From assembly GCA_021807845.1 (NCBI GenBank), contig JAKBCM010000044.1:1-9602 (forward strand): a DNA stretch of 9,602 nt. The letters are read 5' to 3'. The position numbers were made by a program, and so were the translations under genes. The notes beneath the pieces are model-generated. The model was not told the DNA's origin and did no database searches. It saw nothing but the letters and a program-made list of their open reading frames with translations. Position 1 is the stretch's first letter. Every line of letters starts with the position of its first letter. The DNA comes from Pseudomonadota bacterium (lineage in GTDB: Bacteria > Pseudomonadota > Gammaproteobacteria > Legionellales > Legionellaceae). This document shows positions 381-9,558 of this stretch, piece by piece.

Positions 381-650
381 ATGAACAGCAAAGTGTTTTC
401 ACAACGGTTTAATAGGGAGCTATCTTTATTAGGCTTTCCTGAAGACCTAGCAGAAAAAACAAAAGCTGTATCTAAAGTTTTTGGTGTGACTCGCCATCTA
501 GCGAATGCAATGATCTTTGGCCATATGTTACCACCAGAAGATCAACTGGATAAAATTGCTGAAATTCTGGAAGTCTGCCCACAATGGTTAAGTGGCAAAA
601 CAGATCGGAAAAAAGCATACTCAGGACGAGAATCCATTGAAAACGGGTAG
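381..650 (+). CDS. Small helix-turn-helix (cI/Cro-like) DNA-binding protein
   Basis: This 89-residue protein is probably a cytoplasmic transcriptional regulator. Residues 5-73 follow the layout of phage-repressor-type HTH domains. FSQRFNRELSLLG is the first helix. A helix-turn-helix follows around residues 24-46, with the turn at FGVTRH (34-39) and the probable recognition helix LANAMIFG after it. The domain closes with a segment ending EILEVCPQWLSG (61-72), like the VSVEWLLTG-type end seen in this family. There is no dimerisation, peptidase or ligand domain beyond this, only a charged tail of about 17 residues. The ATG is set by a strong Shine-Dalgarno. It lies 49 bases upstream of the DUF155 gene, whose likely promoter sits in between, so it may be autonomous or may regulate that operon. 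Its target is unknown. Reading it as the antitoxin of a pair is not supported, because no toxin-like partner is adjacent. Confidence 0.8.
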   Translation: MNSKVFSQRFNRELSLLGFPEDLAEKTKAVSKVFGVTRHLANAMIFGHMLPPEDQLDKIAEILEVCPQWLSGKTDRKKAYSGRESIENG

Positions 651-5187: not shown

Positions 5188-6828
5188 ATGAAAGCCTCCG
5201 ATCTATTTCTGAATTGCCTTGAAGCCCAAGGGGTTAAAACCATATATGGTGTTCCTGGTGAAGAGAATGCAGATTTTATGATTTCTCTTCTGAATCATTC
5301 CATACAATTCATTACTTGCTGTCATGAACAAACAGCATCTTTCATGGCCACCATGCATGGTCATCTTACAAATGAGCCGGGCGTGTGTCTGGCAACGCTT
5401 GGACCTGGAGCTACGAATCTATTAACGGGTGTGGGACAAGCCAATTTAGATGGCGTCCCATTAGTGGCTATTATAGGCCAAGCAAATACCACAAGACTTC
5501 ATAAAGCTTCTCACCAAAATATCAATTCAATTGAAGTGTATAAACCTGTCACCAAATGGGCAAGAACCATCTTATCGGCGGATACTATCCCCGAGGTGAT
5601 TGCCAAAGCATTTAAAATTGCGGTCACAGGAAGACCTGGTGCCGTATTAATCGAATTACCCCAAGACATTGCCAGCTTTGATACCAATGCTGAGGTGATA
5701 GGAAAACGGGCTCATCCCAACGATGAAGAAACCTCTGAAGAGCAAATTCATGAGTTTCTGAAACTGTTGGAGCGAAGTGAAAGACCATTGCTTTTGATTG
5801 GAGATGGCGCATGCCATAGCGAAAGCGATAAACCCATCCGCGCATTTTTAGATAAAACAAAACTCTATTCTGCCTACACATTCATGGGAAAAGGTGTCAT
5901 CAGTAACCTTTATGAACGATCCCTACATTGCGTGGGTCTTGGTATGAAGGATCTCGCCTTAGAAGCCTTTCAATTATCTGATTTGGTGATTTGTGTCGGA
6001 TACAATCTCGTCGAATGGTCTCCATCGAAATGGAATACAGGCATTAAGAAAAAGATTGTTCATATCGACGTAGAACCCAGTGAAATCGATCAATTCTACT
6101 TGCCGGATTTAGAGATGGTTGGCTCCATTACCCGCATCTTTGAACAAATCAATCCGCATCTAGGTAAGAAACAAAAGAAAGATAACCCCTATTTTGCAGA
6201 CATTCAAAAACATGCGGAAATTGATATTCGTTCCTTTGCAGATGATGACGGATTTCCGATCAAACCGAAACGCATCTTGAAAGATATTCGTGACACATTG
6301 GCAGATGATGACATTTTAATCAGCGATGTTGGGGCCCATAAGATGTGGATTGCAAGACAATATGGTGCCAGACAATCTAAAACTTGTTTTATCAGCAATG
6401 GATTTTGCTCGATGGGTGGCAGTATGCCAGGTGCCATGGAAGCAAAACGTCTTTATCCTGAAAAAAATGTGATTGCGGTGTGTGGTGATGGGGGCTTTAT
6501 TATGAGTATTCAAGCCTTATTTACCGGGGTCACGCAAAAAATACCTTTTGTCGTGATTGTTTGGGAAGATTATCAATATGGCTTAATCAAATGGAAGCAA
6601 GAAATGCACTTTGACAAGCATTCCCATACGGAAGTAGAGCACCATGACTTGGCAAAAATTGCAGACGCGATAGGATGCCACTCTAAACGCATCAGCCAAA
6701 ACCGTGATTTTATCCCATCCTTGCACTGGGCCTTAAAAAATACTGAAAAACCAACTGTGCTTATTGTTCCTGTTGATTATAGCGAGAACATGAAGCTATT
6801 TTATCATCTCAAACAGGAAGTCGAATAG
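5188..6828 (+). CDS. ThDP-dependent acetolactate-synthase-like enzyme, candidate 2-oxoglutarate decarboxylase
   Basis: This 546-residue, full-length thiamine-diphosphate enzyme has the usual three domains. The N-terminal pyrimidine-binding domain (about 1-165) opens with GVPGEENADF (21-30), carries catalytic Glu47 in HEQ, then LATLGPGATNLLTGV (68-82), SHQ (108-110) and GRPGAVLIELPQD (148-160). The central domain follows (about 190-325). The C-terminal ThDP-binding domain has GDGG (433-436) and the second metal ligand Asp461 in VWEDYQYGLIKWKQ (458-471), ending with VPVDYSENMKL (527-537). The last motif is shared with catabolic acetolactate synthase (AlsS). The PGEEN start, GLIKWKQ and the adjacent succinate-semialdehyde dehydrogenase point instead to the 2-oxoglutarate decarboxylase subgroup described in Synechococcus PCC 7002. 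No regulatory small subunit is adjacent, unlike anabolic IlvBN. ATG 5188 is preferred over TTG 5185 because AAAAAAGG ends at 5180 with good spacing. Superfamily is certain; substrate is inferred. Confidence 0.88.
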   Translation: MKASDLFLNCLEAQGVKTIYGVPGEENADFMISLLNHSIQFITCCHEQTASFMATMHGHLTNEPGVCLATLGPGATNLLTGVGQANLDGVPLVAIIGQANTTRLHKASHQNINSIEVYKPVTKWARTILSADTIPEVIAKAFKIAVTGRPGAVLIELPQDIASFDTNAEVIGKRAHPNDEETSEEQIHEFLKLLERSERPLLLIGDGACHSESDKPIRAFLDKTKLYSAYTFMGKGVISNLYERSLHCVGLGMKDLALEAFQLSDLVICVGYNLVEWSPSKWNTGIKKKIVHIDVEPSEIDQFYLPDLEMVGSITRIFEQINPHLGKKQKKDNPYFADIQKHAEIDIRSFADDDGFPIKPKRILKDIRDTLADDDILISDVGAHKMWIARQYGARQSKTCFISNGFCSMGGSMPGAMEAKRLYPEKNVIAVCGDGGFIMSIQALFTGVTQKIPFVVIVWEDYQYGLIKWKQEMHFDKHSHTEVEHHDLAKIADAIGCHSKRISQNRDFIPSLHWALKNTEKPTVLIVPVDYSENMKLFYHLKQEVE

Positions 6829-6833
6829 GAGAT
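6826..6833 (+). promoter_or_regulatory. Ribosome binding site overlapping the decarboxylase stop codon
   Basis: The TAG stop at 6826-6828 is part of TAGGAGAT, whose AGGAG lies eight bases before the ATG at 6840. Sharing stop codon and Shine-Dalgarno suggests coupled translation of the two enzymes. Confidence 0.75.
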
Positions 6834-6839
6834 ATTCTC

Positions 6840-8216
6840 ATGAAACAGATATCCACTCTGAATCCAACCACAGAAGAAGTCTGTGGAACATATCCTTTGA
6901 TGAGTCAAGATGATATCAAACATATCATTGAAGAAATGAGCCGCCAGCAAGTATCTTGGTCTCAAACTGATGTGGGAAGACGTCAAGAGGGGTTTCTAAA
7001 AGTTGCTAAAATACTGCGTGATGAAACGCATCATTATGCATCCATCATCACAACTGAAATGGGCAAACCCATCACACAAGCTGCTCAGGAAATTGAGAAA
7101 TGCGCTCTATTATGTGATTACTACGCAAAAATGGGAGCAACATTTTTAGAAGATGAAATCATCGAAACGAGTTTCTATAAAACGTATCGTTCCTTTCAAC
7201 CGCTTGGAATTATTTTCGCTATTATGCCCTGGAACTATCCATTTTGGCAGGTCATGCGTTTTGCAGTGCCTAATTTGATGGTGGGCAATGCAGGTCTTCT
7301 CAAGCATGCGCCCAATTGCATAGGCACATCGCTAGCTATTGAACAACTCTTTATCAAAGCAGGCTTTCCGAAAGGTTTGTTTAGAAGTCTTGTTGCTGAT
7401 GTGGATGTTGTTCCATTTATTATTCAACATCCAAAGATTTGTGGGGTTACTTTAACCGGCAGTAATCGTGCAGGAATAGCAGTTGGCGAGGAATCGGGGC
7501 GCGCCATGAAAAAAGTGGTTTTAGAATTAGGAGGCAGTGACCCTTATGTGATATTAAAGGATGCAGATATTGAGAATGCTGCATCAGAATGTGTTTCTTC
7601 TCGTCTTGGCAATTGCGGTCAAGTTTGTATTGCAGCCAAGCGAATGATTGTGGTCAAAGAAGTCAAAGAAGCTTTTGAAGCATTGGTTCTAGCAAAAGCC
7701 AAAAAATATGTCATGGGAAATCCTACTGATCCCAACACCAACCTAGGCCCCATGGCTCGTGAAGACTTACGAGCCAATCTACATGAACAAGTGTTACGAT
7801 CAATCAGCAAAGGTGCGCGCTGTGTTTTAGGGGGATCCATACCGAGTGGAAAAGGCTTTTTTTATCCAGCCACAGTATTGTTTGACGTCGATGAAGATTC
7901 ACCTGCGTTTCATGAAGAATTGTTTGGCCCTGTGATCTGTGTCACCGTCGCTGATGATGAAGCACATGCTTTACGCCTTGCAAACCAAACTGAATTTGGA
8001 CTGGCTGCCGCTGTATTTACAAGTGATCTTAAAAAAGGGGAGCACATTGCAAAAAAAGTGTTGATGGCAGGCGGCTGTGCCGTGAATACCCATGTTGCAT
8101 CCGATCCGCGCTTACCCTTCGGTGGCATAAAACAATCAGGATATGGACGAGAATTATCCCTAGAAGGCATGCGGGAGTTTGTGAACATCAAAACAGTTAT
8201 TGTGGCAAAAGTGTAG
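6840..8216 (+). CDS. Succinate-semialdehyde dehydrogenase-like aldehyde dehydrogenase
   Basis: This 458-residue cytoplasmic enzyme of the aldehyde dehydrogenase superfamily probably oxidises succinate semialdehyde to succinate with NAD(P)+. Motifs in order: AIMPWNYPFWQ (127-137) with Asn132; LLKHAP with cofactor-binding Lys155; TLTGSNRAG (204-212); the general base Glu229 in LELGG; the nucleophile Cys263 in GQVCIAAKR (260-268); EELFGPV (359-365); and the C-terminal LPFGGIKQSGYGREL (425-439). Length and the GQVC-AAKR wording fit the short GabD1/Sad (YneI) group of about 460 residues, rather than the roughly 480-residue E. coli GabD. It starts 11 bases after the ThDP enzyme. No gabT aminotransferase is visible, so the semialdehyde more likely comes from the neighbouring decarboxylase than from GABA. 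No active-site residue is missing. Other short-chain semialdehydes remain possible substrates. Confidence 0.9.
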   Translation: MKQISTLNPTTEEVCGTYPLMSQDDIKHIIEEMSRQQVSWSQTDVGRRQEGFLKVAKILRDETHHYASIITTEMGKPITQAAQEIEKCALLCDYYAKMGATFLEDEIIETSFYKTYRSFQPLGIIFAIMPWNYPFWQVMRFAVPNLMVGNAGLLKHAPNCIGTSLAIEQLFIKAGFPKGLFRSLVADVDVVPFIIQHPKICGVTLTGSNRAGIAVGEESGRAMKKVVLELGGSDPYVILKDADIENAASECVSSRLGNCGQVCIAAKRMIVVKEVKEAFEALVLAKAKKYVMGNPTDPNTNLGPMAREDLRANLHEQVLRSISKGARCVLGGSIPSGKGFFYPATVLFDVDEDSPAFHEELFGPVICVTVADDEAHALRLANQTEFGLAAAVFTSDLKKGEHIAKKVLMAGGCAVNTHVASDPRLPFGGIKQSGYGRELSLEGMREFVNIKTVIVAKV

Positions 8217-8334: not shown

Positions 8335-9558
8335 ATGAAACGAAGGGTTGTCATTACTGGAATGGAAATCACCTCCGCAATCGGTAGCGGCTTAGAGGCC
8401 TTTTGGAATGCAGCGACAAAAGGTACCTGTGGAATTAAACGAATTGAGTCCTATGATCCATCCCCCTATACCACTCAAATCGCTGCTGAAATCACTGAGT
8501 TATCATTAGCTCATCTGCCTGAATTTGATAGAAAAAAACGCTATCCCCGTGCAGCGCAATTTGCTTTATATTGTGCTCACCATGCCATCCTTCGCGCGGG
8601 CTTAACAGCGAGTGAATTAACCCTTGCAGGAACATACATGGGTACCAGTCTAGGTGGAACACCAGAGATGGAATCCGCTTATCAAGCTTTTTACACTGAA
8701 AACTGGAAAAAAATTCCCGCCTTGAGCGTCATTCGTGGCATGCCTAATTCTATTGCCAATCATATCGCCATTGCTTTCGGCATTGGGGGACCTAATTCTA
8801 CCATTTCTAATGCTTGTGTATCTTCCGCAGAAGCAATAGGACAAGCGTATCAACAAATCTCTCAAGGAAGGTTAAATGTCGCATTGTGTGGCGGTACAGA
8901 GGCCATGGTGTGTGAAACCATTATGGCTGCTTGGTGTAAGTTACGTGTGATGTCGACCCATAATGAGGATCCTAAAACTGCAAGCCGCCCCTTTGACAAG
9001 AATCGAGACGGCATGGTCATGGCTGATGGTGCAGGGATTTTGATTCTTGAAGAACTGGAACATGCACAAGCTCGAGGCGCTACGATTTATGCAGAAATCA
9101 TTGGTTTTGGCGCCAGTTGTGATGCCCATCACGTCACAGCCCCCCATTCAGAAGGTCAGGCAAGGGCTATTAATGCCTCATTAGATGATGCCCGTGTTGC
9201 TGTTAGCGACATTCAATATATTAATGCGCATGGAACAGGCACTCAACTCAATGACATCACCGAGACCGAAACGATCAAAATGGTTTTTGGCAAACATGCT
9301 TATCAAATCCCCATCACTGCACAAAAAGCTATGACTGGGCACGCCATTGGTGCGGCCGGCGTGATGGAGATCATTGCAACAACTTTAAGCCTACAAAATG
9401 ATATCCTGTTACCCACCATCAATTTGCATGATCCAGATCCATTATGCGATCTAGATTATGTACCCAATCAGGCACGAAAGAAGCGTATTGATATCGCCTT
9501 ATCCAATCACTTCGCTTTCGGTGGTGCAAATGCCGCGATTGTACTTAGACGATTTTGA
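8335..9558 (+). CDS. FabF-like beta-ketoacyl-ACP synthase (KAS II type)
   Basis: This 407-residue cytoplasmic thiolase-fold condensing enzyme probably catalyses decarboxylative condensation of malonyl-ACP with an acyl-ACP, in fatty acid or a related acyl/polyketide pathway. The catalytic set is complete: Cys161 in SNACVSSAEAIGQAY (158-172), His299 in NAHGTGTQLND (297-307), Glu310, Lys331 and His336 in QKAMTGHAIGAAG (330-342). The carboxy end has PDPLCDLDYVPN (367-378) and the gating loop NHFAFGGAN (391-399). Length and the DLDYVPN motif fit FabF rather than FabB. Deviations are Asn-Ala-Cys where Thr-Ala-Cys is usual, MADGAG (229-234) for GEGAG, and FAFGGAN for FGFGGTN. These suggest a specialised paralogue rather than the housekeeping enzyme. 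No acpP or fabG lies upstream as in a classic fab cluster, and the downstream side is cut off by the window end. The ATG is set by GAGG with seven-base spacing. Confidence 0.88.
   Translation: MKRRVVITGMEITSAIGSGLEAFWNAATKGTCGIKRIESYDPSPYTTQIAAEITELSLAHLPEFDRKKRYPRAAQFALYCAHHAILRAGLTASELTLAGTYMGTSLGGTPEMESAYQAFYTENWKKIPALSVIRGMPNSIANHIAIAFGIGGPNSTISNACVSSAEAIGQAYQQISQGRLNVALCGGTEAMVCETIMAAWCKLRVMSTHNEDPKTASRPFDKNRDGMVMADGAGILILEELEHAQARGATIYAEIIGFGASCDAHHVTAPHSEGQARAINASLDDARVAVSDIQYINAHGTGTQLNDITETETIKMVFGKHAYQIPITAQKAMTGHAIGAAGVMEIIATTLSLQNDILLPTINLHDPDPLCDLDYVPNQARKKRIDIALSNHFAFGGANAAIVLRRF

What the first reader, a model, noticed from the sequence alone, without database searches (positions are those of the whole stretch)
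5188..8216. Candidate TCA-cycle bypass: 2-oxoglutarate decarboxylase plus succinate-semialdehyde dehydrogenase
An acetolactate-synthase-like ThDP enzyme and a GabD1/Sad-type dehydrogenase lie 11 bases apart with a shared stop/Shine-Dalgarno. In Synechococcus sp. PCC 7002 an adjacent pair with the same family membership, originally annotated as acetolactate synthase and an aldehyde dehydrogenase, was shown to convert 2-oxoglutarate to succinate semialdehyde and then to succinate. The PGEEN N-terminus, the GLIKWKQ stretch and the absence of an IlvN-type small subunit agree with that subgroup. If right, this organism has a CoA-independent route from 2-oxoglutarate to succinate that routine annotation would miss. 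The gene motifs are seen directly; the substrate is inferred.
Basis: partly seen in the sequence, partly recalled or inferred. Interest (0 to 1): 0.72.

Follow-up and report, generated by a model that had tools for sequence, protein, structure and literature searches.

The report
Second route from 2-oxoglutarate to succinate
Two neighbouring genes, which standard annotation would call an acetolactate synthase and a succinate-semialdehyde dehydrogenase, most likely form the CoA-free 2-oxoglutarate-to-succinate pathway known from cyanobacteria, here in a probable relative of Legionella whose kin also carry the normal TCA-cycle enzyme.

Summary
A 546-residue ThDP enzyme (5188-6828) and a 458-residue aldehyde dehydrogenase (6840-8216) lie 11 bases apart; the second gene's Shine-Dalgarno overlaps the first stop. 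NCBIfam would name the first 'acetolactate synthase large subunit', but the same model scores 878 bits on a characterised 2-oxoglutarate decarboxylase of Microcystis. The window protein keeps 15 of 17 residues discussed for that enzyme, both substrate lysines included; six AlsS, IlvB, IlvI, Gcl and PoxB references lack both lysines. It falls in the decarboxylase family (99/96), not with AlsS (p-AU 0.001), but is not sister to the cyanobacterial enzymes (p-AU 5e-5). The dehydrogenase keeps the succinate-semialdehyde site and is Sad-like.

All 12 whole genomes found here with a window-type copy (at least 55% identity) also encode 2-oxoglutarate dehydrogenase E1, so the pair is probably a parallel, CoA-free route. 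The window's own genome is not held, and the substrate is inferred, not measured.

The parts
5188..6828 (+). ThDP-dependent 2-oxoacid decarboxylase, OgdA/KGD family (NCBIfam NF006187/PRK08322); predicted 2-oxoglutarate decarboxylase, 546 aa
5177..5181 (+). AAGGA Shine-Dalgarno for the first gene
   Evidence: Sequence read directly
5257..5265 (+). GEE of the PGEEN stretch (MiKGD G27-E28-E29), family signature; the two AlsS references have GAK here
5326..5328 (+). Glu47 = MaKGD Glu50, catalytic glutamate that activates ThDP (E50A inactive in PMC10418658)
6337..6342 (+). His384-Lys385 = MaKGD His385-Lys386 (ThDP and 2-oxoglutarate contacts in docking)
6577..6597 (+). YGLIKWK; Tyr464, Leu466, Lys470 = MaKGD Tyr465, Leu467, Lys471 (Lys471: salt bridge to 2-oxoglutarate in docking)
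6826..6831 (+). TAGGAG: stop codon of gene 1 overlapping the Shine-Dalgarno of gene 2
   Evidence: Sequence read directly
6840..8216 (+). Sad/GabD1-type succinate-semialdehyde dehydrogenase, 458 aa; catalytic Cys and Glu, SSA-carboxylate Trp/Arg/Ser and cofactor Lys conserved; Pro in place of the NADP-preference Ser157

Best explanation
The two genes form an operon for a CoA-independent route from 2-oxoglutarate to succinate. The first enzyme uses ThDP to decarboxylate 2-oxoglutarate without oxidation to succinate semialdehyde and CO2. The second oxidises the semialdehyde to succinate, by a catalytic Cys thioester, with NAD(P)+ (probably NAD+, as in Sad). Shown here: the two-gene anatomy, family membership, active-site residues, conserved pairing, and coexistence with sucA/sucB in relatives. 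Inferred: co-transcription, substrate, cofactor preference, direction in the cell, and the role as a valve parallel to 2-oxoglutarate dehydrogenase that gives succinate without succinyl-CoA.
For: Family: NF006187 615 bits against cut-off 509; the characterised Microcystis NIES-4325 enzyme scores 878 bits on the same model, and its identity is backed by 14 of 14 checked residues falling at the numbering of PMC10418658. Residues: of 17 residues that the paper discusses, 15 are identical, including both Lys that contact 2-oxoglutarate in docking; EcIlvB, EcIlvI, EcGcl, EcPoxB, KpAlsS and BsAlsS share 4-9 of 17 and lack both Lys. Tree: family clade 99/96, window+AlsS rejected p-AU 0.001. Partner: the best solved relatives are Sad SSADHs (425 bits), with a SSADH labelled here as Synechococcus A2771 at 373 bits; 8 of 9 checked cofactor, catalytic and SSA-site residues conserved. 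Linkage: Sad-type SSADH adjacent in 9 of 12 genomes with a window-type copy (6 of 8 in the order, 3 of 4 outside); of the 70 closest homologues (P0002-P0071), 69 have a contig length given, and 32 of these 69 share it with a listed SSADH homologue, against 0-2 in ten shifted controls. Context elsewhere: in 369 gammaproteobacterial genomes the family is commoner where sucA is missing (52 of 89 sucA-minus, 95 of 280 sucA-plus, Fisher p 6e-5, relatedness not corrected); in three genomes a family member lies beside sucA-sucB-lpd, in two of them with sucC-sucD too.
Against: No assay. MaKGD Gln254 and Ala408, both in the substrate pocket, are Gly and Cys here, so specificity could have shifted; the Ala-to-Cys change is common in other family members. 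Profiles alone do not settle it: MiKGD itself passes one AlsS model (PRK08617, 521/510), which the window misses (445/510). Only cyanobacterial members of the family have measured activity in the papers seen here, and the window clade is not their sister. All 12 relatives with a window-type copy keep sucA, so no gap in the cycle forces this function. Three of the 12 have no adjacent SSADH: G110 has a copy elsewhere (53%), G055 nothing over 31%, G157 was not searched further. Over the wider family pairing is not universal: 46 of 80 loci gave no aldehyde-dehydrogenase match in the stored flanks, the Microcystis locus among them (some contigs are short).
Confidence: 0.7

Rival explanations
1. Same fold and chemistry but another 2-oxoacid, for instance 2-oxoadipate to glutarate semialdehyde, which the partner would oxidise to glutarate.
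For: Two pocket residues differ from MaKGD (Q254G, A408C). JGI names many partner homologues succinate/glutarate-semialdehyde dehydrogenase.
Against: Both substrate lysines and the rest of the compared pocket are kept; the partner keeps the succinate-semialdehyde carboxylate site; no lysine- or 2-oxoadipate-pathway gene was identified among the window's other ORFs by Pfam or NCBIfam.
Confidence: 0.12
2. A 2-oxoglutarate-using carboligase: the enamine from 2-oxoglutarate is transferred to glyoxylate or another acceptor, as PMC10418658 reports for Rv1248c, or the pair runs in reverse from succinate.
For: Relatives do not need a bypass since they keep sucA. Reverse use of a KG decarboxylase was proposed in Pseudomonas fluorescens (PMC8945261, abstract and passages seen), though the primer table there names an alkB gene.
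Against: A tightly linked aldehyde-oxidising partner argues for release of a free aldehyde. MaKGD makes the aldehyde (PMC10418658 section 2.4).
Confidence: 0.1
3. A true acetolactate synthase (catabolic AlsS-like or an IlvN-less AHAS), as the database name says.
For: NF006187 is named acetolactate synthase large subunit and the score is over its cut-off; the solved relatives closest in sequence are AlsS.
Against: The same model covers the characterised 2-oxoglutarate decarboxylase; the AlsS and AHAS model cut-offs are missed; the AU test rejects a clade with AlsS; AlsS and AHAS references lack the two lysines; no IlvN in 8 of 8 relatives; acetolactate formation gives an aldehyde dehydrogenase partner no obvious role.
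Confidence: 0.05

Closest known systems
OgdA/SsaD bypass of Synechococcus sp. PCC 7002 (SynPCC7002_A2770/A2771) and MaKGD/MiKGD of Microcystis
   Same: Same ThDP family and active-site signature, same SSADH branch (Sad/GabD1 type), two adjacent genes
   Different: 43% identity to MiKGD; separate subclade (p-AU 5e-5 against a joint clade); decarboxylase gene first, while SSADH comes first in the six of seven cyanobacterial loci with the pair; SSADH has Pro for Ser157, as Sad; relatives have 2-oxoglutarate dehydrogenase, which cyanobacteria lack (PMC5160925, passage)
Sad (YneI) succinate-semialdehyde dehydrogenase
   Same: Best solved relative (8qms, 425 bits), identical at all 9 checked positions
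   Different: 484 bits against a cut-off of 855 for the equivalog model PRK13968 (that this model stands for Sad/YneI is recalled); encoded beside a decarboxylase
Catabolic acetolactate synthase AlsS/BudB
   Same: Closest solved ThDP structures; same three Pfam domains (recalled for AlsS)
   Different: 31-32% identity; lacks Lys386 and Lys471; separate clade
Mycobacterial/Corynebacterial multifunctional KGD/OdhA and SucA
   Same: Acts on 2-oxoglutarate with ThDP (recalled)
   Different: A different E1 family (TIGR00239/PRK12270), encoded separately in relatives

Membership tests
Cyanobacterial-type 2-oxoglutarate decarboxylase (OgdA/KGD, within NF006187) | Passes the family profile that the characterised enzyme passes | tested here: met
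   615 bits, cut-off 509; MiKGD 878 bits
Cyanobacterial-type 2-oxoglutarate decarboxylase (OgdA/KGD, within NF006187) | Groups with characterised members apart from AlsS and AHAS | tested here: met
   96 (SH-aLRT) in an 88-row quick tree with long outgroup branches, 99/96 in a 30-row careful tree without Gcl and PoxB; window+AlsS p-AU 0.001
Cyanobacterial-type 2-oxoglutarate decarboxylase (OgdA/KGD, within NF006187) | Catalytic Glu50, Asp435, Asp462 and substrate Lys386, Lys471 | tested here: met
   Glu47, Asp434, Asp461, Lys385, Lys470
Cyanobacterial-type 2-oxoglutarate decarboxylase (OgdA/KGD, within NF006187) | All 17 discussed residues identical (Gln254, Ala408 too) | tested here: not met
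   15 of 17; Gly252 and Cys407 differ; these two vary in the family at large, so I do not treat them as defining
Cyanobacterial-type 2-oxoglutarate decarboxylase (OgdA/KGD, within NF006187) | Releases succinate semialdehyde and CO2 from 2-oxoglutarate, not from pyruvate | not testable with these tools
   Needs an assay
Cyanobacterial subgroup of OgdA | Joint clade with cyanobacterial enzymes to the exclusion of others | tested here: not met
   p-AU 5e-5
TCA-cycle bypass replacing 2-oxoglutarate dehydrogenase | sucA/sucB absent from the organism | tested here: inconclusive
   Own genome not held; sucA present in 12 of 12 genomes with a window-type copy, sucB in 8 of 8 examined
Sad/GabD1-type SSADH | Catalytic Cys262 and Glu228; SSA site Trp135, Arg139, Ser419 | tested here: met
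   All conserved (residues from PMC7510979)
Sad/GabD1-type SSADH | Passes a curated SSADH equivalog cut-off | tested here: not met
   PRK13968 484/855, PRK09406 461/730; so no curated equivalog name applies, and the label rests on residues and nearest relatives
Acetolactate synthase AlsS | Passes AlsS models and groups with AlsS | tested here: not met
   TIGR02418 413.5/551, PRK08617 444.6/510; AU test. Caveat: MiKGD passes PRK08617 (521/510)
AHAS large subunit (IlvB/IlvI) | Passes TIGR00118; IlvN/IlvH small subunit beside it or in the genome | tested here: not met
   367/538; IlvN 0 of 8 relatives; own genome not held

The most novel reading that the evidence does not exclude
A lineage of gammaproteobacteria with an intact 2-oxoglutarate dehydrogenase has independently assembled, from a different subclade of the decarboxylase and a different, Sad-like (probably NAD-linked) dehydrogenase in the opposite gene order, a second CoA-free 2-oxoglutarate-to-succinate operon that works as a parallel overflow valve and has been hidden under the name acetolactate synthase.
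Probability: 0.45. Interest if true: 0.6.

Novelty: new variant of a known kind. Interest (0 to 1): 0.45.

Why it matters
If right, the CoA-independent 2-oxoglutarate route is not only a cyanobacterial patch for a broken cycle. It would also run beside a complete TCA cycle in Legionella relatives and other gammaproteobacteria, and a widely used family name (NF006187, acetolactate synthase large subunit) would mislead metabolic reconstructions: a family-level match (E up to 1e-120) is found in 147 of 369 sampled gammaproteobacterial genomes, and 26 of 28 loci checked from that search carry both substrate lysines. It makes testable why a cell would keep both routes.

Tried and rejected
Rejected: true acetolactate synthase (tree, residues); glyoxylate carboligase and pyruvate oxidase (25-28% identity, residues differ); membership of the cyanobacterial subgroup; an operon extending into the downstream FabF-like gene (118-base gap; no FabF-like match in the fetched flanks of 8 related loci, though two of those flanks, L119 and L121, reach only about 2 kb or less past the pair). 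Led nowhere: promoter and terminator scan found fewer sites than shuffles; no Rfam match over threshold and no tRNA; the distant DNA search of plasmids gave six hits, all inside the SSADH gene; paper searches for Legionella or gammaproteobacteria with 2-oxoglutarate decarboxylase gave nothing on this pair (search listings, and passages of the papers cited). No structure model was made, since the tool returns no coordinates with which to measure the pocket.

The sucA list used E up to 1e-100. The handle lists and the contig lengths were typed by hand; the handle counts match the tallies (147, 280).

Full report
What is there. The window (9602 bases, 41% G+C) holds seven plausible larger genes on the + strand (Pfam and NCBIfam): DUF155, an Xan_ur permease, a PMT_2 glycosyltransferase, a GNAT acetyltransferase, the ThDP enzyme (5188-6828), the aldehyde dehydrogenase (6840-8216) and a FabF-like ketoacyl synthase (8335-9558), besides a small ORF at 381-650. 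The ThDP and dehydrogenase genes are 11 bases apart, and AGGAG overlaps the first stop.

Where it comes from. No whole genome is held for the window. Of the listed homologues of three window proteins (120 rows each), 23 bear an organism name; 13 of these are Legionella, Legionellaceae or Legionellales, the rest other or unspecified bacteria, among them Piscirickettsia, Vibrio and Paraphotobacterium. I take the source to be a member of the Legionellales; this is inference.

Which family. NCBIfam NF006187 (PRK08322, named acetolactate synthase large subunit) is passed at 615 bits against 509, whereas the AlsS and IlvB models are missed. The name is the problem. Locus L080 is Microcystis aeruginosa NIES-4325, and its 550-residue ORF has all 14 residues checked from PMC10418658 at exactly the paper's positions (abstract, introduction and sections 2.1 and 2.4-2.6 seen). 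That paper reports the NIES-4325 and NIES-843 enzymes as purified 2-oxoglutarate decarboxylases, and finds no aldehyde from pyruvate or four other 2-oxoacids with the NIES-843 enzyme. The decarboxylase scores 878 bits on NF006187, so passing NF006187 does not mean acetolactate synthase. Profiles are not a clean judge between the two, since the same Microcystis protein also passes one AlsS model (PRK08617, 521/510), which the window misses.

Active site. Of the 17 residues that the paper discusses, the window protein has 15, including Glu50, His385, Lys386, Asp435, Asp462, Tyr465, Leu467 and Lys471 (paper numbering); Gln254 is Gly and Ala408 is Cys. Six reference enzymes (IlvB, IlvI, Gcl, PoxB, two AlsS) have 4-9 of 17 and neither Lys386 nor Lys471. 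The lysine pair is in 217 of 231 rows of the family-wide alignment; the 14 without it are the six references, seven distant paralogues from related genomes, and L075. In 28 further loci 26 have it, two have His at 471. PGEEN and GLI(x)WK are thus marks of the family, not of a cyanobacterial subgroup.

Tree. In an 88-row quick tree the family splits from AlsS with 96 support, with long outgroup branches. In a 30-row careful tree the family clade has 99/96; joining the window clade to AlsS is rejected (p-AU 0.001), and joining it exclusively to the cyanobacterial enzymes is rejected as well (p-AU 5e-5). The window lies in a clade (100/100) with Piscirickettsia litoralis and Vibrio sp. S4M6 proteins (P0050, P0071), with Actinomycetospora and Myxococcota proteins next.

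The partner. The dehydrogenase is nearest to Sad among solved structures (8qms, 425 bits) and then to a cyanobacterial SSADH (4it9, 373 bits; that this is the Synechococcus enzyme is partly recalled). Using the residues of PMC7510979 (passages), Trp130, Asn131, Trp135, Arg139, Lys154, Glu228, Cys262 and Ser419 are conserved and Ser157 is Pro, as in Sad. That Pro and the paper's statement that Salmonella YneI prefers NAD+ suggest NAD+ use; this is inference. No curated SSADH equivalog cut-off is passed.

Conservation of the pair. Of 143 genomes of the order, 8 have a 59-73% copy and 10 a 39-42% homologue. Of those 8, 6 have the Sad-type gene directly downstream; G110 has one elsewhere at 53%, and G055 nothing above 31%. 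In a 369-genome sample of the class, 6 have a copy at 55% or more, 4 of them new (G468, G176, G446, G157). The partner is downstream in G468 and G176, upstream in G446, and not seen within 1.5 kb in G157. Together that is 9 of 12. In the partner tree 9 of 10 paired dehydrogenases, the window's included, share a clade (96), and G446's falls with unpaired ones (93). In the six of seven cyanobacterial loci that show the pair, SSADH comes first, so the pairing probably arose more than once. Among the 80 loci, 34 gave an aldehyde-dehydrogenase match in the stored flanks, mostly next to the decarboxylase, and 46 none. Ten adjacent dehydrogenases were profiled: nine are nearest to NF040648, all below its cut-off, and the tenth is cyanobacterial and nearest to an SSADH model. 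Recurrent pairing with aldehyde dehydrogenases of more than one kind fits a decarboxylase that releases an aldehyde, but the pairing is not universal.

Bypass or parallel route. sucA is found in 142 of 143 genomes of the order, 141 over cut-off, including all 8 with the window-type gene, and sucB is over cut-off in 8 of 8. The four further window-type genomes also have sucA over cut-off. Across the 369 genomes the family as a whole is enriched where sucA is missing (family present: 95 with sucA, 52 without; absent: 185 with, 37 without; Fisher p 6e-5, relatedness uncorrected), but window-type genomes are 6 of 6 with sucA. So elsewhere in the family the enzyme may well close the cycle, while in the window's clade it most likely works beside the dehydrogenase complex. 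In G310 and G154 a family member follows sucA-sucB-lpd-sucC-sucD on the same strand, and in G235 one stands divergently from sucA-sucB-lpd, each with a DsbA-like gene in between; all three match MiKGD at the 18 positions compared. sucA was identified by profile in all three genomes, sucB, sucC and sucD by profile in L165 and sucB in L167; the rest, lpd included, by order, length and N-terminus. These are three picked cases, not a count. They tie the family to the 2-oxoglutarate node.

Mechanism. ThDP ylide (Glu47) attacks 2-oxoglutarate held by Lys385 and Lys470; CO2 leaves; the enamine is protonated and succinate semialdehyde is released; the partner forms a Cys thiohemiacetal with it, reduces NAD(P)+ and releases succinate. 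Residues are seen; the reaction is carried over from the cyanobacterial enzymes. The most serious doubts are the two changed pocket residues and the lack of any assay in this clade.

What is known. PMC5160925 (abstract and passages) describes OgdA/SsaD in Synechococcus 7002 and states that 2-oxoglutarate dehydrogenase is absent in all cyanobacteria. PMC4224347 (passages) notes that the cyanobacterial enzyme lies with acetolactate synthase and apart from Euglena and Mycobacterium enzymes. I found nothing on this pair in Legionella relatives or other gammaproteobacteria in the searches; most subscription papers are not in that library, so this is weak.

Verdict. New variant of a known kind, of moderate interest.

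Noticed in passing
L089-L098 (10 of 143 genomes of the order): A 39-42% homologue with MaKGD His385 replaced by Leu, Val382 by Thr and Gln254 by Met but both substrate lysines kept; no SSADH match in the fetched 1.5 kb flanks.
   Followed up: partly
L165 8452-9090, L166 3149-3862, L167 6977-7624, L118 5638-6273: A DsbA-like thioredoxin gene sits next to the decarboxylase in three gammaproteobacteria (the L165 copy is 56% and 43% identical to the other two), and an annotated DsbA family gene follows it in the Halorarius plasmid; the link is unexplained.
   Followed up: partly
L021, L034, L026, L010, L018, L047, L028, L007, L062: A second, unnamed kind of aldehyde dehydrogenase (nearest NF040648, all nine below cut-off) stands beside the decarboxylase in place of the SSADH in other subclades.
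   Followed up: partly
NCBIfam NF006187 (PRK08322): The equivalog name 'acetolactate synthase large subunit' covers a characterised 2-oxoglutarate decarboxylase and looks wrong for much of the family.
   Followed up: yes
window 381-650: An 89-residue ORF preceded by AAGGAGGG and without a Pfam family over cut-off; a 34%-identical stretch lies just upstream of an AlsS-like gene in L099 at 1231-1494 of the reverse strand.
   Followed up: no
window 8335-9558: FabF-like ketoacyl synthase with 465 bits against the FabF cut-off of 493.75 of TIGR03150 (it passes the subfamily model NF005589); possibly a diverged paralogue.
   Followed up: no
L118 2604-5587: A haloarchaeal plasmid carries annotated SSADH and 'acetolactate synthase' genes overlapping by four bases in the opposite order, so a similar pair reaches archaea.
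   Followed up: partly
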